Below the pieces are notes generated by a model. The model saw only the letters and a program-made list of their open reading frames with translations. It searched no databases and was not told the origin of the DNA. A stretch of DNA of 64,000 nt, taken from Bacteroidia bacterium. Lineage in GTDB: Bacteria; Bacteroidota; Bacteroidia; B-17B0; Aurantibacillaceae. The stretch is taken from positions 1 to 64,000 of the forward strand of contig JAEUTO010000004.1 in assembly GCA_016787785.1 (NCBI GenBank), in the 5' to 3' direction. Each line of letters opens with the position of its first letter. The first letter of the stretch is position 1. The translations under genes and the position numbers were made by a program. This document shows, piece by piece, positions 21,018 through 34,594 of the stretch.

Positions 21018-21860
21018 ATGGAGCAATATGAAAAAATAAATTCCGAACTCGAAGAACAGCTATTATTTATCACTCACGAAACAAATTGCTGCATAAAGCA
21101 GGCCGAACTTTCAGTCCCCATTTGCGCTAATGCCCTTGATGCGATTAAGAAGCGCGTGTACAAATTACCTTTCAAATCACCTAAAGACGAAATTTTCTTC
21201 TTCAAGTATCTTAAGCCAAAAATATCTTCTAGGTTAATTTATCATGTTCAGGTGTTTAATATTGAAACCCGTAAACCTTCCGGAACAAATCAACAACAAA
21301 AAAAGTATCTTTCGCGCCAACTAAAAAATATTAATCGCTTCGTTGAAGAAAATCTGGAATTTCACCAGTATTACCGAAGTAATAGTGTGTTCTTAGATGA
21401 AAAGTATTTTATACGTGGCAAAGCTGACCTGCATCTAATTCTCAATAATGGTTTTTATAATTACGATCCCAATTTCAACACCTCCCACGATCATATGGTT
21501 GCCCTCATAATTGCAAACGATAGGTTAACTATTTACATTCGTGATGAGATCAATAAATTAGAAAGGCAAAACAAATTAACAGATCAACAACAACATAACA
21601 ATCCTAAATTCACATGGACAGATTCTAAAACCTACCTCGTTGAACTCATATATGCACTCCACGCCATAGGTGCTATCGAAAACGGCAAACCAGATATAAA
21701 AGAAATAGCAACAACGTTCCAAAGGGTTTTCAATATCGATCTTGGTAATTACTATCACGCTTACATCGAAATCCGAAACCGTAAATCCGGCCGCACAAAA
21801 TTTTTAACCCTTCTTCAAGAAGCCCTCACCAAAAAAATGGACGAACAAGATGGTAAGTAG
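21018..21860 (+). CDS. RteC-domain protein of a conjugative/mobile element
   Basis: A 280-residue protein recognised by overall pattern: N-terminal helices ('EELEEQLLFITH'-like start), the core 'KYLKPKISSRLIYHVQVF', 'FHQYYRSNSVFLDEKYFIRG' and a winged-helix-like C-terminus ('FTWTDSKTYLVELIYALHA'). RteC of CTnDOT-type elements activates excision genes in Bacteroides. Many Bacteroidota genomes carry stand-alone relatives next to Xre regulators, as here. It lies 22 bp after the Xre gene, probably in one transcript. Confidence 0.85.
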   Translation: MEQYEKINSELEEQLLFITHETNCCIKQAELSVPICANALDAIKKRVYKLPFKSPKDEIFFFKYLKPKISSRLIYHVQVFNIETRKPSGTNQQQKKYLSRQLKNINRFVEENLEFHQYYRSNSVFLDEKYFIRGKADLHLILNNGFYNYDPNFNTSHDHMVALIIANDRLTIYIRDEINKLERQNKLTDQQQHNNPKFTWTDSKTYLVELIYALHAIGAIENGKPDIKEIATTFQRVFNIDLGNYYHAYIEIRNRKSGRTKFLTLLQEALTKKMDEQDGK

Positions 21861-24605: not shown

Positions 24606-25298
24606 TTACTTTTTAAGAGATAAAAATTGTTCAAAGAAAATTTTAGCATACGTTTTCCCATAATAATTTATTAATGACTTACTACTTAATAAGATTATCA
24701 AATAAATTAGAGCAAGCAGAACAGCAGTAAATTGTAGGGCTCTATTTTCGATAGCGACTGAATAAAATATTGTTCCAATTGAAAAAATAAAAGCAAGCAA
24801 ACTTCCTCCTATAAGATTTCGCATGAAGCCATATTCAATGTTGTGCTGAAGTAAGAGACGATTATCCCTCAGATCATTTCTCCCCAGCGACAAACATGAG
24901 GCAATTAATTTTCTTGCTCGAAGCTCATCAACTTTTTCAGCATCAAAATCTAAAAGATTAATATTATAATATTGTTGTATTCGTTCACGAATTGTGTTTT
25001 TTATACTCTCTTCTAAAGTTAGATCATAGCCCATTAATTGATTTACCGTTGGCATTTTTAGTTCGTCATGGAAATATATTCTTTGAAATACCTCCTTTGC
25101 CAACAGCCGATTAATCTGTACCATTAAAAATATCAGAGCCCCGGATATACCAATGTTAATAAGAATCTGAAAAATTGAACTTAGTGGTATAAGGCTATTA
25201 GCATTGTTAAGTAAGAAAAAGTTAGTTAACACTAATAGTGGAATACAAGTTAAAAGTGTAGGGAACAAACGTGCGTTTAAATAATATTTCGTTATCAT
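24606..25298 (-). CDS. Four-helix membrane protein, last gene of the ubiquitin-like operon
   Basis: A 230-residue protein I do not recognise. Two hydrophobic helices are near the N-terminus (about 12-30 and 38-60), then a soluble charged middle of about 85 residues, then two more helices (about 148-170 and 178-200) and a basic tail. It starts 3 bp after the E2-E1-JAB gene, so it is translated from the same message. A membrane-acting effector or an anchor for the operon's enzymes is possible. Resemblance to SLATT-type two-helix effectors is weak. Confidence 0.7.
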   Translation of the reverse strand: MITKYYLNARLFPTLLTCIPLLVLTNFFLLNNANSLIPLSSIFQILINIGISGALIFLMVQINRLLAKEVFQRIYFHDELKMPTVNQLMGYDLTLEESIKNTIRERIQQYYNINLLDFDAEKVDELRARKLIASCLSLGRNDLRDNRLLLQHNIEYGFMRNLIGGSLLAFIFSIGTIFYSVAIENRALQFTAVLLALIYLIILLSSKSLINYYGKTYAKIFFEQFLSLKK

Positions 25299-25301
25299 AG
25301 C

Positions 25302-27533
25302 TTATTCAAATATAAAAGGTAATATTTTTCCATTGGACACAATAATTGACAGGGTTGGAATTGGAACTTTATCGTTAATTACCTTTAGCTCTGCAACATT
25401 TGATCTATCCTGTCCGCTTAATGAATCAAGACCCATTGGATGCGAGTGCCATTCACCAATATAGCCAATTAATCCCCCTGTTCTTTTTTTAATTTCATCA
25501 ATTGCATTTGGCAAATTGTGTACCCCTCGATAGAAACATGCACATTCAGCAATGCTATCCGAAGGAGCGTCAATTAGGTCAAAAACATGCACAACCTTTG
25601 TTTTATAATTTACCAGACCAACTAACACGCCGGCTGCTTCTTTAGGTTTTAAAATACTGGAGGCTTCATGTATCCTACTACTAATCCCATCTGCCATTCT
25701 AATATTCCAACTTTTATCATTTATGCATGCATAGTTTTCAAATGGCTTTACTATAACTAAATTGCTTTTTACGATATATGGAAATTCATCCGAACGATTG
25801 TTTAAATAAACATAACCATAATTAACTTTTGCGGTATCGGATATTAATTTTGAAAAAATAGCGGCATGCAAAGATATATCATCATCGGCTATTAATACTG
25901 TAGTTGAACTACATCCTAAGCCAACTGGTAAGTTTTCCAACTCTGTTGTCGAATCATATTGTCTCCATGCTTCAATCTCTGGATATGATAGCGCTGCAAA
26001 ATAGGTATAATTAACAAGGTCATCAATGCGCGGATTTCTGTCCTTGCCTTCTTTGTATAAAAGCCCTAATGTGCCTTTGTGCACAATTTCAGCTCTAAAT
26101 AAAAGTTGGTTTTGAATGTTTGGATTTACTGTAAGCCAATTTTGCACATTCAATGACGCAGTCGAATCTACAATAACTTGGTGTTCATTAAAATCAGATG
26201 CCTCTAATGTCAGAAGATCCTGAGGTATAGCTTTTAAATTTTTTGTTTGTTGAACTTCGAAATAGTCTTGCGCTTCTTTAATAAGGGCAACTGCTTTATT
26301 TTTACCAAGTCGACCGCTATGCAAAGAATGACGAGCAAGATTATGATGTAAGAAAATATCTTTGTCAACAATGGTCATTTTATTATTACCGCCTCTTAAA
26401 TTATGCATAAAAATTTTAGATCCTAGTGCACCACCACCTAAAAATAATATTTTTTCTCTATTTTCTTTACCGGAAATCCTACTTGCCAATTCGGAAGTAA
26501 AAGGCTCAATATGGCTTTGGTTTTTTACTTCGGCATTTTTTGGTATTTTCATTCCTTGTACATTAGACCCTAAAATTGTAAAATTTAAGAACTCTACATC
26601 GCCTTCATATCCCACAATTTTTTTCGGCCTTTTTAAAGCCAATATTACAGGTATACGCCTTCTAGTATTAAGTTTGTTAGTTATGTAAAATTTTAAAGCC
26701 AGTTTTATATCGATTGAAAATTGATCACAGAAGTTTTCGAAATCTTCAAGTGTTTTTGGTAAATCAGTTTGATAATCTGAAAACGTTTCTTCTTTATCTG
26801 ACCAACATAAAATCGAAAGTATTGGGTTTTCAACAGGCTTTAATTTTTTTAATTCGGCCATAGCTTCAAGCGTTACTTTTAACGCAATCAAAGGTAGCGC
26901 TTCAAAACTTTTATAAGATAACCCATCCTTTGAATTAGCCCCAACAGATCCAAATAAAATAGCAAAATTAAATTCTGGTGCTACTGAATTTTTTTTAGTT
27001 ACAATTTCATACAATTTATTATACTGATATGAATGAATACCATTATAAGAATCCAACCTAGTAGGATCAAATTCATTGCCGTCTGTACCTAATAAACCGG
27101 ACCCAGCTTTATAAAGCCATAACTTAATACTATTTATAAAGCCCTCAATCGTATGTTCAGCAAACCAATCGTTTTGGCCATTTCTATTAATACATAAAAC
27201 CGCTTGGTCAGCTACGGCATATAAATGTGGTAGTCTTGTTTTCGGAAAATCCTTGCGATCACTATGAACTTTTGGTGCAATAAATGGATAATAGTTTTTT
27301 GAAACCATCAATAATAAAGGCTCTACTTCTCTTATATCAATATCATCCACCGTGCCACCGCTCGGTAGAGACACTTCTATCGTAATTGGTATTGCAACCC
27401 GGCCAGTATCACCATCAAACAATTTTCCTCCGGTATATACACCCAAATCCTTTAACTTGGATATTAGAAAGTTTATAGCAGGGCTTAATGTGCCTTTATG
27501 TTCAGATAGAGAAGTACTATATAAGTTATCCAT
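25302..27533 (-). CDS. E2-E1-JAB fusion: ubiquitin-like conjugation enzyme with built-in isopeptidase
   Basis: A 743-residue, three-part protein. Residues about 1-150 look like a bacterial E2 (UBC) domain with Cys114 in 'AVLCINRNGQNDW' as candidate catalytic residue. Residues about 355-600 are a ThiF/E1 domain: 'GGGALGS' (366-372), Asp390, 'NLAR' (398-401), 'VDST' (455-458) and candidate Cys541 in 'GLGCSST'. Residues about 620-743 are a JAB/MPN peptidase with a full JAMM set: Glu632, His696, His698, Ser706 and Asp709 ('HSHP...SGQD'). It should adenylate a protein C-terminus, transfer it to a target and also cleave the product. CBASS uses separate Cap2 (E2-E1) and Cap3 (JAB); here all are in one chain. 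Its start overlaps the stop of the metallo-hydrolase gene (ATGGATAA). Confidence 0.9.
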   Translation of the reverse strand: MDNLYSTSLSEHKGTLSPAINFLISKLKDLGVYTGGKLFDGDTGRVAIPITIEVSLPSGGTVDDIDIREVEPLLLMVSKNYYPFIAPKVHSDRKDFPKTRLPHLYAVADQAVLCINRNGQNDWFAEHTIEGFINSIKLWLYKAGSGLLGTDGNEFDPTRLDSYNGIHSYQYNKLYEIVTKKNSVAPEFNFAILFGSVGANSKDGLSYKSFEALPLIALKVTLEAMAELKKLKPVENPILSILCWSDKEETFSDYQTDLPKTLEDFENFCDQFSIDIKLALKFYITNKLNTRRRIPVILALKRPKKIVGYEGDVEFLNFTILGSNVQGMKIPKNAEVKNQSHIEPFTSELASRISGKENREKILFLGGGALGSKIFMHNLRGGNNKMTIVDKDIFLHHNLARHSLHSGRLGKNKAVALIKEAQDYFEVQQTKNLKAIPQDLLTLEASDFNEHQVIVDSTASLNVQNWLTVNPNIQNQLLFRAEIVHKGTLGLLYKEGKDRNPRIDDLVNYTYFAALSYPEIEAWRQYDSTTELENLPVGLGCSSTTVLIADDDISLHAAIFSKLISDTAKVNYGYVYLNNRSDEFPYIVKSNLVIVKPFENYACINDKSWNIRMADGISSRIHEASSILKPKEAAGVLVGLVNYKTKVVHVFDLIDAPSDSIAECACFYRGVHNLPNAIDEIKKRTGGLIGYIGEWHSHPMGLDSLSGQDRSNVAELKVINDKVPIPTLSIIVSNGKILPFIFE

Positions 27534-28692
27534 GTTTAATTACGGTAGAAGCTGCCCCTGTGCCGCCTGCTGAACCAATTGAATTAGAATTTGTCGTTTT
27601 TGGTGGTCTTGAAGGGCCTTTAGCTGTAATAATAAACTCAATAGGTTGCGGAGTCTTGTCGTTAACATCATCGGTATCAGTATTAAGAAACTTATCTTTC
27701 CCAACCTTCTTTATATACTCTTCCTTAGCTTCGTAGTGTGGTGGATTATCATCATCATCAATAATTTCTTTACTGGATGCTATTACAATTGCATTCTTAC
27801 GTTTGTAATCTAAGACCTTCAGTGAATTCTCTTTTGGATCAGGATGTTCATCCTGAGGCGTTTCATTAAAAAATGACCAGGAGCAATGATGAGGAGCTAA
27901 AAACAGATCCCAATCCAAGGCTTTTTGTGTTTGATGATTTTTCTTTCTTTCAGTTTTCTCTAAAATTACTTCCCATGACTCATGATCCGAATCTCCACCA
28001 AACATTGCTAAACAAATATATTCAGTATCAACGGCGTGATTTTTAAAACGAGCCTGAAATACAATACTAGGAGTGTTTTTATTGTTAGCATCTTCTATTT
28101 GAACTTTAAAAGGTGCATGGATGAAAATTGAAAATTTATTCTGCTCCTTATTATTGATGTTAGTAACAACTGTTCCTGGAGTTTGACGCAAATGATCAAG
28201 ATCTTTATAATCTTTATTAGCGCCGTCATATCCAATAATGTAAATACGATTACCCGGTTCATTTCTGTTTGGATCTTTATCTTTATGTAGCTTAAGACGG
28301 CGTTCTGCTTCGGTTTGTACGATATCCTCGTCGTCGTTAGAAGATTCCTCTGCAATCATTGGGGAAAACCATAGCTCGTCTATAATAATTTCACCATCTT
28401 TTCTGTTTTTTTCACCATACTTTTTTGGATCACCTTGGTAAAAATTATTTTCGAATCCTCTGCAATGATCTTCATCTCCATGAGTAAGAACAAATACATC
28501 AACATAAGGATTACTATTTCTTTTTTGTATGGAGTTTAAAAGATCTTCTTTCACATCATACATAGTTTTATCTTTATCACCTTTTGATCCTTCACGAATG
28601 TTACAATCCACTAAGATGGTTGTATTATCTTCAAGTGTAATTAGTGACATATCACCATTGCCTGTTGGGTAGTATTTTATTTTTGCATTCAT
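27526..28692 (-). CDS. ComEC-like metallo-beta-lactamase-fold hydrolase with glycine-ended tail
   Basis: A 388-residue soluble protein. It has the metal-binding motif 'THGDEDH' (70-76), an acidic 'FGGDSDHESW' strand (231-240) and 'APHHCS' (266-271), matching the MBL domain of ComEC/Rec2-type proteins that cut nucleic acids or nucleotides. The last 30 residues are Gly/Ser/Thr/Ala-rich and probably disordered, ending '...STVIKHG'. The terminal Gly recalls ubiquitin-like proteins and CD-NTases that are conjugated through their C-terminus. The gene overlaps the E2-E1-JAB gene by 8 bp. Activity and substrate are not shown by sequence. Confidence 0.85.
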   Translation of the reverse strand: MNAKIKYYPTGNGDMSLITLEDNTTILVDCNIREGSKGDKDKTMYDVKEDLLNSIQKRNSNPYVDVFVLTHGDEDHCRGFENNFYQGDPKKYGEKNRKDGEIIIDELWFSPMIAEESSNDDEDIVQTEAERRLKLHKDKDPNRNEPGNRIYIIGYDGANKDYKDLDHLRQTPGTVVTNINNKEQNKFSIFIHAPFKVQIEDANNKNTPSIVFQARFKNHAVDTEYICLAMFGGDSDHESWEVILEKTERKKNHQTQKALDWDLFLAPHHCSWSFFNETPQDEHPDPKENSLKVLDYKRKNAIVIASSKEIIDDDDNPPHYEAKEEYIKKVGKDKFLNTDTDDVNDKTPQPIEFIITAKGPSRPPKTTNSNSIGSAGGTGAASTVIKHG

Positions 28693-28694
28693 AA

Positions 28695-29279
28695 TTAATT
28701 TTGATTTTCTATTATTAATAATTGATTGTATTCTGTTCTCATTAACATTAATTGTTCTGTTTCCATTTTTAAGCGTATTTCGAAAGTTGTTATTAACACG
28801 GGTTCAAAACAATTTTTTTGGCACTCTCTCATTATAAAATACTCTTTTAGTATCTGCAAAGTAAGATTAAAATCGCCCAATTTGTTTTTAACTATTATGC
28901 AAACAGCATTAAAGCTTAATGAGGCAATGGTTATTATTGTAAACACAGCTTCAAAAAAACTGAAATTAAATACCGCATAACACATTATACTTATACCTAT
29001 TATCATTCCTATTATTGAAATTTTTACCCATCTGAAAAACCTCAGCGACTTTTGAATTATATCGTCATTAAGTGCTCTTAGTTTTTCGACTTCGGTGATT
29101 AGATACCCGATCATTGATTCTTTTTCTACGATATCCCTTTGAAGCTCTTCACGCCTGAACGTGACATCATCTTGATAGTTTTTAACTTTTTCGCTTTGTG
29201 AGGCCTTATAAATTATCCAGAGAACAACCAATAATAGTCCTAAAAGAAACCAACCTAAAAAATTATTTTTATTTTTCAT
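28695..29279 (-). CDS. Coiled-coil membrane protein of the ubiquitin-like operon
   Basis: A 194-residue protein with an N-terminal membrane helix ('FLGWFLLGLLLVVLWIIY'), a coiled coil of about 50 residues, two adjacent helices (about 88-108 and 112-135) and a soluble tail. I do not recognise a named family. The layout of helices plus coil loosely recalls SLATT or pore-forming effectors seen in bacterial defence operons. It lies 2 bp before the MBL gene, and that spacing indicates co-translation. Confidence 0.7.
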   Translation of the reverse strand: MKNKNNFLGWFLLGLLLVVLWIIYKASQSEKVKNYQDDVTFRREELQRDIVEKESMIGYLITEVEKLRALNDDIIQKSLRFFRWVKISIIGMIIGISIMCYAVFNFSFFEAVFTIITIASLSFNAVCIIVKNKLGDFNLTLQILKEYFIMRECQKNCFEPVLITTFEIRLKMETEQLMLMRTEYNQLLIIENQN

Positions 29280-29303: not shown

Positions 29304-29639
29304 TTAACCTAGATCTTCTATTCCTGCATTAGGCGCATCCCTTTTAACTGCTGCAATTCCATTATCTCTGGCTTGTGACGAATTATATACCTCACTTCTG
29401 CCAACTATTTCTCCGTTAGCGGCTAAAAGATTAAAACTATATCCTGCCGCAGTACTTCGTTTATCATAGCGAAGATCCCAAGATGAATTACTCTTTACGG
29501 AAATAATTCCATTTTGGCACGATTGTTTACTTATGTAACCTTCTCCGCCTAAGATAATTTCGCCGTTAGCAGCTCGTAAGCGAAAATAAAACTGACTATT
29601 TGCACTACTTTTGAAGATTTGAAATTTTGGATTGTTCAT
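29304..29639 (-). CDS. YegP-like (DUF1508) protein
   Basis: A 111-residue protein made of two tandem DUF1508 repeats: 'FYFRLRAANGEIILGGEGY' followed by 'SCQNGIISVKSN', then 'YSFNLLAANGEIVGRSEVY' followed by 'ARDNGIAAVKRD'. YegP proteins are small, widespread and poorly understood; a role in stress or nucleic-acid binding has been suggested for the fold. It ends 24 bp before the coiled-coil membrane protein. Its presence in a ubiquitin-like operon is unusual. Confidence 0.85.
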   Translation of the reverse strand: MNNPKFQIFKSSANSQFYFRLRAANGEIILGGEGYISKQSCQNGIISVKSNSSWDLRYDKRSTAAGYSFNLLAANGEIVGRSEVYNSSQARDNGIAAVKRDAPNAGIEDLG

Positions 29640-29657
29640 TTTTTTTGTTTTTGATTA

Positions 29658-29882
29658 TTAGTGAATATTAAATCCATCGGTGGCTACAATAATAACATTG
29701 TAACCTTTCCATTGATTTTTTTTAATTAGTCCCTTTATTTTTTCTGAAACAATTGGATGGTTTTTATCGATAGCAACTTCAATTACAGGAATATTGTCCT
29801 TATTGATTACACCAATACCATTCACACCATCCCAAAGAATGATCTGTTTTTCCAATTCGTTCTTAGCTTCTTCTATATTCAT
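29658..29882 (-). CDS. Small protein sharing the N-terminal domain of the adjacent protease
   Basis: A 74-residue protein: 'VNGIGVINKDNIPVIEVAID', then 'VSEKIKGLIKKNQWKGYNVI' and 'VATDGFNIH'. The strand-helix-strand pattern with a 'GIG' turn matches the propeptide-like domain that precedes many bacterial trypsin-like proteases. The protease next door has a related 'NGIGFIN...ILEIGID' stretch (residues 21-69). It could inhibit, present substrates to or target the protease, or even serve as a small modifier, although it does not end in Gly. Spacing to the protease gene is 6 bp. Confidence 0.65.
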   Translation of the reverse strand: MNIEEAKNELEKQIILWDGVNGIGVINKDNIPVIEVAIDKNHPIVSEKIKGLIKKNQWKGYNVIIVATDGFNIH

Positions 29883-29888
29883 AATTTA

Positions 29889-30842
29889 TTATTTTATAGG
29901 GTAACCCCATTGTTTTAATTGTTGTACAACTAGAGTTTGGTGATTGGCAAGTGTCCATGTTCCGTTACCTGCAAAAAGTAATCCTACCAGTGCATTATCA
30001 GTACGCGATTTAATTATGGATCCTGAATCGCCTCCGGCACTAAAACTATGCCCGGCAATTCCGGTAGTTATTTGTATTTGATCAACAAAAACAGCGTTAA
30101 AACCACCGTAGTTAATTTTTGAAGTATAATGTAAAGAACGCACAATGCCATTAGTCACTCCGGTTGTTGCTCCTCGTTTGTACACCTTCTCTCCAATAAA
30201 AGGTGTTCTATAGCCAGCAGAGTTTTTGGGTATCGGATTGCTAAAACCATGTAATTCCGCAATAGCTAAATCTAATCTATTTGCACCATTAGTAATAGGT
30301 ACATAGTTATCCAAAGTGCCTATTCTTACAGCAGACCCGTCTAATGAGTATATTGCGTCGCCTACATTTGCATTATTGCTATCTGCTAAAACGTGGTTGT
30401 TACTGATAATACATGGATTTTCATTTTTATTTCGAGGTAGTAAAAAGAAACCTAGTGATCCATAAGAGTTTCCAGCGAGGTTCACATGCCCAACTTTATT
30501 TCCTGGGTTAAGGGTTAAGTGTGCATTGTATTTTTGCTTCGGTCTTATTTGTATATAGGCTTCATTGATCATAAGCTTTCTACAAATATCATTTTTCAAG
30601 CAGCTGCAAAATGCTTGAGATTTTGTTAAACCTGAGTCAATTCCAATCTCTAAAATATTTCCGTTTAATAGTCCAACTGAAATTATATCATTGGCATAAT
30701 TTGCGTTTGAATTAAATCCCGTAAACGCGGAGGATTTTTGAAAATGGTTTTGCGCCGATTCATTAATAAATCCGATACCATTTGTGTTGGTACCTAAAAG
30801 GACCTCTTCAATAAAACTTTTTCCGTTGTAAATATTTTTCAT
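29889..30842 (-). CDS. Cytoplasmic trypsin-like serine protease, first gene of the ubiquitin-like operon
   Basis: A 317-residue protein without a signal peptide. Residues about 10-110 hold a 'GIG'-type N-terminal domain and three Cys. The peptidase domain has His150 ('ISNNHVLAD'), Asp191 ('NRLDLAIAEL') and Ser273 ('SAGGDSGS'), a complete S1 triad. Trypsin-like proteases inside the cell are common effectors in bacterial immune operons. It may alternatively act as a deconjugase. It is the first gene after a 460-bp gap, so the operon promoter should lie just right of it; I see only a weak AT-rich candidate there. Confidence 0.85.
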   Translation of the reverse strand: MKNIYNGKSFIEEVLLGTNTNGIGFINESAQNHFQKSSAFTGFNSNANYANDIISVGLLNGNILEIGIDSGLTKSQAFCSCLKNDICRKLMINEAYIQIRPKQKYNAHLTLNPGNKVGHVNLAGNSYGSLGFFLLPRNKNENPCIISNNHVLADSNNANVGDAIYSLDGSAVRIGTLDNYVPITNGANRLDLAIAELHGFSNPIPKNSAGYRTPFIGEKVYKRGATTGVTNGIVRSLHYTSKINYGGFNAVFVDQIQITTGIAGHSFSAGGDSGSIIKSRTDNALVGLLFAGNGTWTLANHQTLVVQQLKQWGYPIK

Positions 30843-31306: not shown

Positions 31307-32308
31307 TTAGACACTTTTTAACTCAAATCCGTATTTATAGCTGATCCCTTTAAACCCTTCAACATTCTTCTGCCATCCGCTTTCATCGTGGCTCACATCT
31401 ACAATTTTACTTGTATTCATAGGTTTAAACTTGTCGGCAATAATTTCCATCACTTCTAATTCCTCCCTCGAAAACAAACCTGCATTAAATTTCCGATCAT
31501 TTCTCGGCATAAAATGCTCACCTATTTTTCCGTCGCTAAACTCTGTATATACTATATCAATATGATCTTTGTTCGCCGCATAATCAAATAAGGTTCCAAA
31601 ATTCTTAGGCACGGGTCCCAGTTGTATGGCCATATACCTGGCGCCGCTAATTGAAAAACAGCTCTTTTTAAAGTTTAAAAAATCCGAGTAAAACAACACT
31701 TTATTCATTTTTGTTTTATATGGCTCCAGTCGTTCTGTAAAAAACACAACCATCTCCACGAACTTATCTAGCTGCGGAATTTTAAACCCGGTATATTCGT
31801 CCGGCAGTTTGTCCCCCATCATATATACTTCAAGGTCAACATCAAAAAAATCTTTTTCAAGATCTTTTACCTCTTCAATTATTTTTATTCTTTTTTCAAG
31901 TTCACCACCTTCATAAGTTCGGCTCAATTTTAATAGCTTAAGAAATTCTTCGGGATCTTTTGCAAGCTGAATAAGCCTGGCATTCGACTCACTGGGAATT
32001 TCACCACTCTCATAGTTTCTGTATACGTTAATTCCAAAGCCTAATATTTCCGACATTTTTGTTGCTGGTAACGCATACTTATTGCGTATAGCAATTATTT
32101 CTTCCGGAAAAGGCAAATGGTGTTTAGCTCTGTACTGGTTATACAATTGGTTTAAATTTATTTCATCGAGCTCCTGCGTGGTGTATTTATCACCGGTGAT
32201 CGGGTGTTCGTAATAATGATACCGCACGCCGAACTCTTCCTTGCGAAAGGTTAAAGCCTTGTTCTCTATCTTCAAGGTCTTTCCTTTTTCTGTAAATGAA
32301 TTTTTCAT
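31307..32308 (-). CDS. Antitoxin with helix-turn-helix and SocA/Panacea (DUF4065) domain
   Basis: A 333-residue protein. Residues about 45-105 form an MqsA/HigA-like HTH ('PATKMSEILGFGINVYRNYE'). Residues about 165-300 are a SocA-like/Panacea domain: 'MNKVLFYSDFLNFKKSCFSI', then 'YMAIQLGPVP'. Panacea domains are known as versatile antitoxin domains paired with many unrelated toxins (PanAT systems). The N-terminal zinc-binding Cys of MqsA are absent. It overlaps the upstream toxin gene by 4 bp, the usual sign of a two-gene module. Confidence 0.85.
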   Translation of the reverse strand: MKNSFTEKGKTLKIENKALTFRKEEFGVRYHYYEHPITGDKYTTQELDEINLNQLYNQYRAKHHLPFPEEIIAIRNKYALPATKMSEILGFGINVYRNYESGEIPSESNARLIQLAKDPEEFLKLLKLSRTYEGGELEKRIKIIEEVKDLEKDFFDVDLEVYMMGDKLPDEYTGFKIPQLDKFVEMVVFFTERLEPYKTKMNKVLFYSDFLNFKKSCFSISGARYMAIQLGPVPKNFGTLFDYAANKDHIDIVYTEFSDGKIGEHFMPRNDRKFNAGLFSREELEVMEIIADKFKPMNTSKIVDVSHDESGWQKNVEGFKGISYKYGFELKSV

Positions 32309-32649
32309 GCTACAAGTTTTTTAAATGGATAATTTATTTTTTGATCTGAGGGACAAAATGAAACACATATCGCTTCTGCTCCGTACCAACCTACAATAAT
32401 TTTAATGCATATTTCTTTACTCTTATGGGTTTTTCCAAAAATCCAAACGGTCGAACCGCATACTTCATTAATTACTGGCCCATCACTATAATCTTCCTCT
32501 GTAATACCATCTATGATTTTATTTCTCTCTTCAGTACGCATCTCTAAATTGGCAAGCATTTGGGCATTGCCATGCTCGGTAAAATATACCTCCCAGGCAC
32601 TTGCCTTCTTCTCTCTAAAATCCTCCAGAAATTGCGTAACTTTGTCCAT
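32305..32649 (-). CDS. MqsR-like toxin
   Basis: A 114-residue protein. Its C-terminal half ('IIDGITEEDYSDGPVINEV', 'EICIKIIVGWYGAEAICVSF') follows the MqsR pattern of an I-x-x-L/I-x-x-x-D-Y segment, a central aromatic strand and a closing V-x-S-F strand. MqsR proteins are mRNA-cleaving RNases of the RelE fold. The assignment is by pattern rather than clear identity. It precedes its antitoxin, as in mqsRA and higBA. It has its own promoter (32680-32711). Confidence 0.7.
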   Translation of the reverse strand: MDKVTQFLEDFREKKASAWEVYFTEHGNAQMLANLEMRTEERNKIIDGITEEDYSDGPVINEVCGSTVWIFGKTHKSKEICIKIIVGWYGAEAICVSFCPSDQKINYPFKKLVA

Positions 32650-32874: not shown

Positions 32875-33315
32875 ATGAAGCAATTAAACAACATAGCAGC
32901 TTTCGTAAAATACAATCGCGAAAAACTAAACCTTACTCAGGAACAATTGGCAGATATGTCTGGAGTAGGAATACACTTTATTCGAGATTTAGAACAAGGT
33001 AAACCCTCGCGCTTTGATAAAGCCGATAAAGTTTTGCAAGTATTCGGCTTTCATCTTGCCCCCACCGTAAACAGTAATGATCCTTGGGGTATTTGGCTCA
33101 AGTATTTAAATAAACCTGTTACAATAACAAAAAAAAACAAGCAGGAAGTAGTAGGATGGCTCATGGAGGAAGTAAGAGATGAAACAGGAGTTATTATTGC
33201 TTGGAAAATAGTTCCAAATCTTAAAGCAATGGAATGGCAAAGAACTAAAGATAAATCTTTGTACGTTGAGGTAAAGCAAAACGATATTGAAAAAATTCAT
33301 GAACAATTAGTATAA
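32875..33315 (+). CDS. hipB: HipB-type antitoxin and regulator
   Basis: A 146-residue protein. The N-terminus is an Xre helix-turn-helix ('NREKLNLTQEQLADMSGVG', then 'FIRDLEQGKPS') ending at about residue 65 with 'VLQVFGFHLAP', a typical HipB boundary. A C-terminal extension of about 75 residues follows, longer than usual for HipB. It forms an operon with hipS and hipT, the stop and start overlapping. In HipBST systems HipB binds DNA and enhances control of the kinase. Confidence 0.87.
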   Translation: MKQLNNIAAFVKYNREKLNLTQEQLADMSGVGIHFIRDLEQGKPSRFDKADKVLQVFGFHLAPTVNSNDPWGIWLKYLNKPVTITKKNKQEVVGWLMEEVRDETGVIIAWKIVPNLKAMEWQRTKDKSLYVEVKQNDIEKIHEQLV

Positions 33316-33635
33316 TGAACAACAAGGGAAAAGTAAAACTTCATGAAGCACTTGCCGGTTATGTTTGGCAGGACGAAAATGGGTATTGGTTTGAATACAC
33401 CGATGAGTATTTTAAAAACCCCAAGTATGGCCCTGTTAGCCAAACCTTGCCGGTAACTCAAAAACAATATCACGACTCAAAATCTATGATTGCTTTTTTT
33501 GATGGGTTAATCCCTGAGGGTTGGTTGTTGGACATAGCCCTCGATAATTGGAAGATTAATGAAAAGGACAGAATGGAATTATTACTTACAGTTTGTAAGG
33601 AATGTATTGGGGCTATAAGTATAGAAAAAGAATAA
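33315..33635 (+). CDS. hipS: HipS-type protein (HipA N-terminal domain as a separate gene)
   Basis: A 106-residue protein matching the N-terminal subdomain of HipA: 'LAGYVWQDENGYWFEYTDEY', 'GPVSQTLPVTQKQY', 'MIAFFDGLIPEGWLLDIALD', 'LLLTVCKECIGAISIE'. In split HipBST systems this piece is the antitoxin that neutralises the HipT kinase. It ends in TAATG, where the TAA overlaps the hipT start. The split is therefore the normal HipBST state and not a frameshifted hipA. Confidence 0.88.
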   Translation: MNNKGKVKLHEALAGYVWQDENGYWFEYTDEYFKNPKYGPVSQTLPVTQKQYHDSKSMIAFFDGLIPEGWLLDIALDNWKINEKDRMELLLTVCKECIGAISIEKE

Positions 33636-34594
33636 TGGTTGAAAATGTAAATAGATGTTTGTACTGCTATCAAAAATTAGGTGATGGCGAAAATGGTTTT
33701 CATTCTAAATGCAGTAAGTTGTTTTTTGAGCTTCCCGCTCCACCTTCTTTGTCATTAACGGAAAATGAATTGAATGATCTCGCAAAACAAATCGTAAGCA
33801 GTAGTGTAACAATTCCAGGTGTTCAACCCAAACTGTCCCTTGGTATTCAACGAAATTCACAAGATCCTAAAAAATCAAGACTTACAATCGTAGGTTTATG
33901 GGGAGAATATATTTTGAAGCCTCAAACACCGCGTTTCAAAAATTTACCTGAGAATGAAGATTTGATAATGCACTTGGCGCAACTTGCAGGTATTGAAACT
34001 GCCGAGCATACTTTATTAAAAATAGAGTCTAGTCAATTAGTTTATATTACTAAAAGATTCGATCGTGTTAAAAATAAAAAAGTTCCTATGGAAGATTTTT
34101 GTCAACTATCGGGCTTATTAAGCGCGGATAAATACAAAAGCTCTATGGAAAAAGCGGGTAACATCATCAATACATACGTTAGCCCAACAGCAAAAACGCT
34201 TGATACGATGAGGTTTTTTGAAGTAGCATTGTTTTCGTTCTTAGTTGGAAATTCAGATATGCATCTAAAAAACTTTTCTATTATTAAAAACGAAGAAAAC
34301 CAATACCGTTTATCTCCTGCTTACGATTTGCTTTCAAGCAATGTGGCAATGCCGGCTGATAAAGAACAAACAGCGTTAACCCTTCATGGCAAAAAAAACA
34401 GAATAAGAAGACCAGACTTTGTTTCTTTTGGTACAAAAATTGGATTGCAAGAAACGGTAACAGAAAAGATTTTAAATAAATACAACAATGAAATGCTTGA
34501 GAGGTTCACGGAATTTACTTCTATTAGTTTCCTCCCTGATGATTTAAAAGAAGAATTTATTTCTCTTATGAAATCACGCTTTGCTATTTTATAA
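33635..34594 (+). CDS. hipT: HipT-type serine/threonine kinase toxin
   Basis: A 319-residue protein from the ATG overlapping the hipS stop. It starts with a zinc-ribbon-like motif ('CLYCYQKL ... HSKC'), then the HipA-kinase Gly-rich loop 'SSVTIPGVQPKLSLG' with candidate autophosphorylation Ser, an ATP-binding Lys95 in 'YILKP', catalytic Asp208 in 'GNSDMHLKN' and metal-binding Asp231 in 'SPAYDLL'. HipT of the known system phosphorylates tryptophan-tRNA synthetase; the target here is unknown. A start at 33602 is possible but would extend into the hipS gene, so I prefer 33635. Confidence 0.9.
   Translation: MVENVNRCLYCYQKLGDGENGFHSKCSKLFFELPAPPSLSLTENELNDLAKQIVSSSVTIPGVQPKLSLGIQRNSQDPKKSRLTIVGLWGEYILKPQTPRFKNLPENEDLIMHLAQLAGIETAEHTLLKIESSQLVYITKRFDRVKNKKVPMEDFCQLSGLLSADKYKSSMEKAGNIINTYVSPTAKTLDTMRFFEVALFSFLVGNSDMHLKNFSIIKNEENQYRLSPAYDLLSSNVAMPADKEQTALTLHGKKNRIRRPDFVSFGTKIGLQETVTEKILNKYNNEMLERFTEFTSISFLPDDLKEEFISLMKSRFAIL

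What the first reader, a model, noticed from the sequence alone, without database searches (positions are those of the whole stretch)
27526..28692. MBL protein may itself be the conjugated molecule
Seen: no ubiquitin-like beta-grasp protein is apparent in the operon, yet the MBL hydrolase ends in about 30 flexible residues with a terminal Gly ('STVIKHG'), and its stop overlaps the E2-E1-JAB start. Known: in CBASS, Cap2 joins the C-terminal residue of the CD-NTase to a target. Inference: here the E2-E1-JAB enzyme could prime, attach or recycle the MBL enzyme in the same way, using the JAB domain to release it.
Basis: inference. Interest (0 to 1): 0.85.

Follow-up and report, generated by a model that had tools for sequence, protein, structure and literature searches.

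The report
Self-tagged MBL enzyme in phage defence
A bacterial defence operon pairs a metallo-beta-lactamase-fold enzyme with a ubiquitin-style attachment enzyme, and comparison of its relatives suggests that the first enzyme carries a short tag at its own tail end by which it is chemically attached to targets, in place of ubiquitin.

Summary
The operon is real and matches NCBIfam's '6A-MBL' anti-phage system; Iyer et al. 2006 listed the gene pair as operon type 6a. In 64 clusters of MBLs beside E2-E1-JAB, a Gly tag lies at or near the end of the tail, disordered in the window model. A motif learned on 35 clusters recurs in 22 of 29 held-out clusters, but in 2 of 50 E2-E1-JAB and 3 of 42 downstream-gene C-termini. 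In four loci a lone E2-SEC-C enzyme replaces E2-E1-JAB and the Gly tag is gone; 17 of 20 partners of that E2 (MBLs, CD-NTases, Pycsar cyclases) carry (K/R)P(W/Y) near the end, against 0 of 109 MBLs beside E2-E1-JAB. So the tag follows the enzyme. Caveats: the last residue is Gly in only 29 of 64 clusters, and in the window the Gly codon overlaps the next gene's start; the signal holds without overlap (25 of 28). Only two of the four switched MBLs have the strict motif. No chemistry was done.

The parts
27526..28692 (-). MBL-fold hydrolase, 388 aa, ComEC-like; proposed conjugated protein
   Evidence: NF058524 391.7 bits; AF2 model best matched by ComEC MBL domain 9ic4, Foldseek E 1.1e-11, VIA Z 24.1, rmsd 2.7, 249 aligned
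28465..28482 (-). MBL metal motif H71-x-D73-x-D75-H76
   Evidence: H71, D75, H76 in 51 of 51 orthologues, D73 in 45 of 51
27877..27894 (-). MBL motif PHHCSW (residues 267-272)
   Evidence: H268 and H269 in 51 of 51
27529..27591 (-). disordered tail, residues 368-388
   Evidence: pLDDT below 50
27529..27531 (-). Gly388 codon, the proposed conjugation residue; its first base is the G of the next gene's ATG
   Evidence: alignment column Gly in 49 of 51, one of these (L070) a misalignment; DNA
25302..27533 (-). E2-E1-JAB fusion, 743 aa (Cap2 plus Cap3-like)
   Evidence: NF058523 512.7 bits; closest solved structure Cap2 7to3, E 2e-22 by profile, 2.1e-26 by Foldseek
27192..27194 (-). E2 Cys114 codon
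   Evidence: 48 of 48
25911..25913 (-). E1 Cys541 codon
   Evidence: 48 of 48
25407..25640 (-). JAB metalloprotease residues E632, H696, H698, S706, D709
   Evidence: each 48 of 48
24606..25298 (-). 230-aa protein with hydrophobic stretches (membrane protein by eye), likely effector
   Evidence: in a single-linkage family of 22 among 76 downstream ORFs, 13 of them direct matches; no Pfam, NCBIfam or PADLOC hit
28695..29279 (-). 194-aa protein with hydrophobic stretches directly upstream of the MBL, role unknown
   Evidence: ORF; no family hit; no relative among the 32 upstream ORFs compared

Best explanation
The MBL enzyme takes the place that the CD-NTase has in type II CBASS: it is both the enzyme of the system and the thing that is conjugated. 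Proposed steps: (1) the JAB domain, where needed, trims the residues after the tag Gly (inferred); (2) the E1 domain adenylates the Gly carboxylate and takes it as a thioester on Cys541 (inferred from Cap2); (3) it passes to E2 Cys114 and then to an amine on a target (inferred; target unknown); (4) conjugation primes or localises the MBL, a ComEC-like metal hydrolase that probably acts on nucleic acid or a nucleotide (inferred from fold); (5) its product or action switches on the third gene, a patatin phospholipase or membrane protein (inferred); (6) the JAB domain releases the MBL again (inferred). Shown here: the conserved tag, the low-confidence (disordered) tail, intact catalytic residues in all three enzyme domains, and a change of tag where the enzyme changes. 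All chemistry is inferred.
For: Tag conservation: a motif learned on 35 clusters, nearly all from Bacteroidota, scores p<=0.05 against own shuffles in 22 of 29 held-out clusters and p<=0.01 in 12 of 29, with Gly at the motif end in 27 of 29. Terminal Gly 29 of 64 clusters against 8.9 expected, maximum 22 in 20,000 simulations; Gly in the last 10 residues in 64 of 64 against 47.1 expected. Controls with the same motif at p<=0.05: MBLs 56 of 64 (training clusters included), E2-E1-JAB C-termini 2 of 50, downstream genes 3 of 42, distant MBLs 1 of 16, other ORFs 14 of 300. Clusters where the E frame has no ATG, GTG or TTG before the end of the Gly codon: 25 of 28 at p<=0.05, of which 11 of 14 among held-out clusters (listing). 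Enzyme switch: four MBLs with lone E2-SEC-C lack the Gly tag; 17 of 20 E2-SEC-C partners carry [KR]P[WY] in the last 14 residues against 0.09 expected, and 0 of 109 MBLs beside E2-E1-JAB do in the last 12. L047's MBL core is 77% identical to Gly-tagged L040 yet has the other tail, and in the tree it lies in a supported clade apart from L070 and L063/L169. Tail of low confidence. Nearest solved enzyme is Cap2, in entries of its complex with the CD-NTase. In CBASS the CD-NTase ends in conserved Gly/Ala in operons with full Cap2 and Cap3 but not in those lacking them or the E2 domain, and deleting the Gly abolishes conjugation (PMC10097602, passages read).
Against: The very last residue is variable: Gly in only 29 of 64 clusters, so a trimming step must be assumed for about half. 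In 25 of 64 clusters, the window included, the ATG of E2-E1-JAB touches the Gly codon, so part of the Y/H-G motif can come from gene overlap. Seven of 29 held-out clusters miss p<=0.05. One of 16 distant MBLs also carries the motif (L016..SEYGR; its partner was not examined). Only four E2-SEC-C loci with a 6A MBL were found, two of them 96% identical (L063, L169), and only these 2 of the 4 have the strict motif: L047 ends KQPHCTND and L070 GNWCKS. L062, with a small lone E2-like ORF, still ends FYGEE. No conjugate, target or activity was observed.
Confidence: 0.78

Rival explanations
1. The C-terminal Gly and tail are a by-product of gene overlap: the start codon or ribosome site of E2-E1-JAB is written inside the last MBL codons (T[ATG]G, C[ATG]G).
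For: In 25 of 64 clusters an ATG of the E frame touches the Gly codon; the window is one.
Against: 36 of 64 clusters have no ATG of that frame before the end of the Gly codon and 31 of 36 still score p<=0.05; with GTG and TTG also excluded, 25 of 28 (both sets include training clusters; 11 of 14 of the held-out ones in the second set). In the listing no RAG- or QG-type cluster has an ATG touching the Gly codon. In E2-SEC-C loci a start codon of the E2 frame touches the motif in 4 of 17 (2 ATG, 1 GTG, 1 TTG). A ribosome-site effect was not tested.
Confidence: 0.07
2. E2-E1-JAB conjugates a host ubiquitin-like protein (ThiS/MoaD type) or an unlinked Ubl, and the MBL is a target or a bystander. 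Iyer et al. 2006 suggested use of endogenous ThiS/MoaD for such operons.
For: E1 domain of the ThiF/MoeB family; no Ubl hit among the operon's scanned proteins.
Against: It does not explain why the MBLs carry the conserved Gly tag while E2-E1-JAB and downstream proteins do not, nor why the tag changes with the enzyme.
Confidence: 0.1
3. The tail is only a docking peptide that brings the enzyme to the MBL, or the E1 modifies the C-terminus chemically (as MccB does with a peptide) without protein conjugation.
For: A conserved C-terminal motif can be a binding motif; MccB is among the profile matches.
Against: E2 and JAB active-site residues are invariant in 48 of 48, which points to transfer and release; the conserved position is a Gly, as in CBASS.
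Confidence: 0.05

Closest known systems
Type II CBASS with Cap2 (E2-E1) and Cap3 (JAB), related to operon type 6b of Iyer 2006
   Same: E2-E1 architecture and fold (7to3 is the best match), JAB deconjugase, C-terminal Gly/Ala tag on the partner enzyme; patatin-like third genes in some loci
   Different: The tagged protein is a ComEC-like MBL, not a CD-NTase; E2, E1 and JAB are in one chain; about half of the tags carry a short extension after the Gly
6A-MBL anti-phage system (NCBIfam NF058523/NF058524); operon type 6a of Iyer 2006
   Same: The window's two core genes score far above both cut-offs
   Different: The papers I could search gave nothing on what is conjugated; in the lone-E2 variant (L047, L063, L070, L169) the MBL meets the model (three scanned, 379-398 bits) but no E2-E1-JAB hit lies beside it
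Type II-short CBASS with a lone E2
   Same: Two E2-SEC-C proteins scanned (L063, L165) match PADLOC E2 models, and 11 of 20 partners are CD-NTases (and record annotation)
   Different: Here the same E2 family also sits behind MBLs and Pycsar cyclases
ComEC/Rec2 MBL domain
   Same: Fold and metal motif
   Different: Stand-alone protein with a C-terminal tag, linked to a conjugation enzyme

Membership tests
6A-MBL system (NCBIfam) | MBL protein over the NF058524 cut-off (220 bits) | tested here: met
   391.7 bits
6A-MBL system (NCBIfam) | E2-E1-JAB protein over the NF058523 cut-off (320 bits) | tested here: met
   512.7 bits
6A-MBL system (NCBIfam) | anti-phage activity of this copy | not testable with these tools
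   needs phage challenge
Cap2-type E2-E1 conjugating enzyme | E2 and E1 domains with catalytic cysteines, Cap2-like fold | tested here: met
   C114 and C541 in 48 of 48; 7to3 best by profile and by fold
Cap2-type E2-E1 conjugating enzyme | substrate is a CD-NTase encoded in the operon | tested here: not met
   the partner gene is an MBL; so it may work like Cap2 but the operon is not CBASS
Type II CBASS | CD-NTase gene | tested here: not met
   none among the flanking proteins scanned
JAB/JAMM isopeptidase | E, HxH, S-x-x-D metal site (motif recalled) | tested here: met
   E632, H696, H698, S706, D709 in 48 of 48
Ubiquitin-like conjugation substrate | flexible C-terminus ending in (or trimmed to) a conserved Gly/Ala | tested here: met
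   very last residue Gly in only 29 of 64 clusters, so the trimming is assumed
Ubiquitin-like conjugation substrate | thioester and isopeptide adducts | not testable with these tools
   needs biochemistry
ComEC-like MBL | fold and metal-binding motif | tested here: met
ComEC-like MBL | nuclease or phosphodiesterase activity | not testable with these tools
   needs an assay

The most novel reading that the evidence does not exclude
Conjugation of the signalling enzyme itself is a general, portable control layer in bacterial immunity. Short C-terminal tags act as address labels that match the conjugating enzyme: a lone E2 with a SEC-C motif reads (K/R)P(W/Y), and E2-E1-JAB reads a Gly tag. The same E2 family serves three unrelated enzyme folds (CD-NTase, Pycsar cyclase, MBL). 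Since the other partners all make nucleotide second messengers, the 6A MBL may also generate a nucleotide signal, perhaps by cutting phage nucleic acid, which then switches on patatin or membrane effectors.
Probability: 0.4. Interest if true: 0.88.

Novelty: new variant of a known kind. Interest (0 to 1): 0.74.

Why it matters
[quoted passage not shown] If the MBL, and by the same reasoning Pycsar cyclases, are conjugated through their own C-termini, the principle is not peculiar to CBASS: bacteria attach the immune enzyme itself, not a ubiquitin, to control it. The tag-follows-enzyme rule gives direct tests, and the question of what operon type 6a does, open since its description in 2006, becomes testable with single-residue changes.

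Tried and rejected
Gene-overlap artefact: tested; it can explain part of the Y/H-G pattern but not the rest. General Gly-rich tail composition: tested by per-sequence shuffles and by controls. Very-last-residue conservation: rejected in its simple form, 29 of 64. A separate ubiquitin-like gene: no hit among the window proteins scanned; the recurring neighbour groups (76 downstream and 32 upstream ORFs, of 93 loci with enough flank) were not tested for a beta-grasp fold, and unlinked Ubls are not excluded. The downstream proteins were not matched to named CBASS effectors beyond weak PADLOC hits (2 of 9 proteins, E 5.1e-4 and 9.6e-4). No match of the MBL in the phage collection. The phylum search around G395 gave, besides G395 itself, only the same seven places. 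Motif scan: by eye it put the tag wrongly in L007, L014, L127 and L153; the counts are left as computed.

Literature: '6A-MBL' gives 0 papers in the held library. The listings (20 of 159 shown) showed no title on conjugation of an MBL; of the listed papers I read passages of four only (PMC1779556, PMC10097602, PMC11153139, PMC12355090). Preprints and most subscription journals are not held, so a publication may exist.

Rows dropped before the counts: L001, L136-L144, L152, L155-L158, L160 (same places fetched twice); L039, L052, L118 (identical proteins); open ORFs at contig ends (for example L088, L109) and MBL hits under 80 bits (the 16 of these with closed ORFs over 200 aa serve as the distant MBLs); L069 (contig end) and L078 (two ORFs, broken). 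115 MBLs remained: 109 with an E2-E1-JAB hit of 25 bits or more beside them (some of these E frames are cut by the locus end or short, e.g. L044, L064), 4 with E2-SEC-C, 2 other (L062, L071). Fetched: 17 of 252 plasmid records for the MBL (chosen for diversity), 4 of 312 for E2-E1-JAB, 7 of 11 for E2-SEC-C; 80 of 324 relatives in genome contigs were kept by the tool.
Full report
What is there. On the minus strand the window carries a 194-aa gene with hydrophobic stretches (28695-29279), an MBL-fold gene (27526-28692), an E2-E1-JAB gene (25302-27533) and a 230-aa gene with hydrophobic stretches (24606-25298), tightly spaced. NCBIfam names the two core proteins as the MBL-fold protein and the cap2_3 protein of the anti-phage 6A-MBL system, both far over the curated cut-offs. 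Iyer et al. 2006 described this pair as operon type 6a, a triple-module E2-E1-JAB protein almost always next to a metallo-beta-lactamase (PMC1779556, passages read). So the system is known; what is conjugated is the open point.

The observation. The MBL ends in STVIKHG. The NCBIfam match stops at residue 359 of 388, and AlphaFold2 gives pLDDT below 50 for residues 368-388 in a model of mean pLDDT 90.6. The stop codon overlaps the next gene: CAT GGA TAA contains the ATG of E2-E1-JAB. Cys541, Cys114 and the JAB site are invariant in 48 of 48 orthologues.

Collecting relatives. I gathered MBL relatives from plasmid records, GTDB species genomes (best 80 of 324), viral contigs and whole genomes by family search (over the cut-off in 8 of 395 genomes of the window's own phylum, own genome included; that phylum is Bacteroidota by inference from the nearest named relatives; 2 of 249 in the phylum of the Clostridium genome G396; 7 of 398 in the phylum of the Bradyrhizobium genome G399; G396 and G399 themselves are counted). 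After removing duplicates and broken or truncated copies, 115 remained: 109 with an adjacent E2-E1-JAB hit, 4 with a lone E2-SEC-C, 2 others. They form 68 clusters at 70% identity, 64 of them with E2-E1-JAB.

A conserved tag. Most tails end with motifs such as PRAG, PKTYG, SKYG, VVKQG or PLSHG, followed by nothing or by a few residues. In the 51-sequence alignment the Gly388 column is Gly in 49 of 51 (one of them, L070, is a misalignment), while columns 360-387 are far more variable. A motif learned on 35 clusters, nearly all from Bacteroidota, and tested on 29 others scored p<=0.05 against shuffles of the same tails in 22 of 29 and p<=0.01 in 12 of 29. Terminal Gly: 29 of 64 clusters against 8.9 expected from tail composition; Gly in the last 10 residues: 64 of 64 against 47.1 expected. 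The same motif was near chance at the C-termini of E2-E1-JAB (2 of 50), downstream genes (3 of 42), distant MBLs (1 of 16) and other ORFs (14 of 300), against 56 of 64 for the MBLs themselves, training set included.

An artefact checked. In 25 of 64 clusters, the window included, the ATG of E2-E1-JAB touches the Gly codon, as in T[ATG]G for Tyr-Gly. This could create Y/H-G endings without selection on the protein. In the 36 clusters with no ATG of that frame before the end of the Gly codon, 31 still score p<=0.05; excluding GTG and TTG also, 25 of 28, and 11 of 14 if only held-out clusters are counted (the last count is mine from its listing). The tag is therefore not just an overlap effect, though the window's own Gly should not be taken alone as evidence.

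The tag follows the enzyme. In L047, L063, L070 and L169 the MBL is followed not by E2-E1-JAB but by a lone E2-like protein of 214-221 aa with a Cys/His cluster of SEC-C type (Pfam SEC-C in L047 and L070, none in L063; cluster aligned in the three). Three of these MBLs were scanned and all meet the 6A-MBL model (379-398 bits). The four tails end KQPHCTND, KKPWCNTDD, GNWCKS and KKPWCKTNE. I then looked at the partner genes of this E2 family in the 7 of 11 plasmid loci that I fetched and in all 9 matches in 395 genomes of the window's phylum. Together with the four MBLs there are 20 partners: 4 6A MBLs, 1 other MBL, 11 CD-NTases and 4 Pycsar cyclases (and record annotation). 17 of 20 carry (K/R)P(W/Y) in the last 14 residues, against 0.09 expected from shuffles, and 0 of 109 MBLs beside E2-E1-JAB do in their last 12. 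By class: 2 of 4, 1 of 1, 10 of 11 and 4 of 4. A possible start codon of the E2 frame touches the motif in 4 of 17 (two of them ATG). L047's MBL core is 77% identical to the Gly-tagged L040, and in the tree L047 sits in a supported clade away from L070 and L063/L169, so tail and enzyme changed together at least twice; the direction is not shown. Limits: few 6A loci of this type, two of them 96% identical; L062, with a small lone E2-like ORF, ends FYGEE.

How it most likely works. The best solved match to E2-E1-JAB is Cap2, by profile (7to3, 2e-22) and by fold (7to3, the Cap2-CdnD02 complex, 2.1e-26). In CBASS the CD-NTase C-terminal Gly or Ala is taken up by Cap2, transferred to lysines and released by Cap3; the residue is conserved in operons with full Cap2 and Cap3 and not in those lacking them or the E2 domain (PMC10097602, passages), and the Bacillus cereus cyclase ending KPGGFA is linked to PspA and released by Cap3 (PMC11153139, passages). 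I infer that the MBL is treated in the same way. By the motif scan 35 of 64 clusters have one or more residues after the tag (at least four placements are wrong by eye), which suggests that the JAB domain also matures the MBL. The MBL fold is closest to the ComEC MBL domain (Z 24.1) and its metal motif is intact, so a nuclease or phosphodiesterase activity is likely. Of 93 loci with enough flank, 76 gave a same-strand ORF after the enzyme gene: 22 fall in the window's own family (single linkage; 13 match the window protein directly), 14 in a family that includes patatin phospholipases (Pfam hit for L004; L130, L131 and L134 by record annotation), and 11, 5 and 4 in further groups whose shown representatives look like membrane proteins by eye; the rest are pairs or singletons. 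No transmembrane predictor was run. These look like effectors, which makes the MBL the counterpart of the nucleotide cyclase.

Known and new. The operon is a member of the known 6A-MBL system. That the MBL is the conjugated molecule, that a lone-E2 variant exists, and that tags match enzymes across three enzyme folds did not appear in the paper listings I could get, which exclude preprints and most subscription journals. From memory only, a 2024 paper on a single-E2 CBASS of Serratia reports processing of the cyclase C-terminus; it is not held and may describe the (K/R)P(W/Y) tag for CD-NTases. [quoted passage not shown]

Noticed in passing
L165, L172, L174, L177: Pycsar cyclases directly followed by an E2-SEC-C family gene, all four carrying (K/R)P(W/Y) near the C-terminus: an E2-linked form of Pycsar.
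   Followed up: partly
L181, L182 (haloarchaeal plasmids): CBASS-like cyclase (below NCBIfam cut-offs) plus a ThiF-family gene found with the window's E2-E1-JAB, plus a SAVED effector gene; the cyclases end DQRFA and HQFAASDS, perhaps an Ala tag without and with an extension.
   Followed up: partly
L062:5989-7221 and following: 6A MBL followed by a small lone E2-like ORF (128 aa, NLCLYYP) and a tail ending PHRFYGEE; perhaps a third enzyme type.
   Followed up: no
L016 (70-bit MBL homologue): A distant MBL whose C-terminus SEYGR also fits the Gly motif; its partner gene was not examined.
   Followed up: no
window 32875-34594: Helix-turn-helix gene, HipA N-terminal domain and HipA C-terminal domain as three genes: a split HipA toxin-antitoxin arrangement.
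   Followed up: no
window 31307-32649: Gene with SocA/Panacea match and weaker MqsA-like match, with a small upstream partner.
   Followed up: no
window 21018-21860: RteC-family gene (conjugative-transposon regulator, role recalled) near the operon: the region may be mobile-element cargo.
   Followed up: no
window 29304-30842: DUF1508 gene and a weakly trypsin/Nal1-like gene upstream of the operon; whether they recur in relatives was not tested.
   Followed up: no
L078 (Niabella defluvii): MBL gene split into two ORFs; left out of all counts.
   Followed up: no
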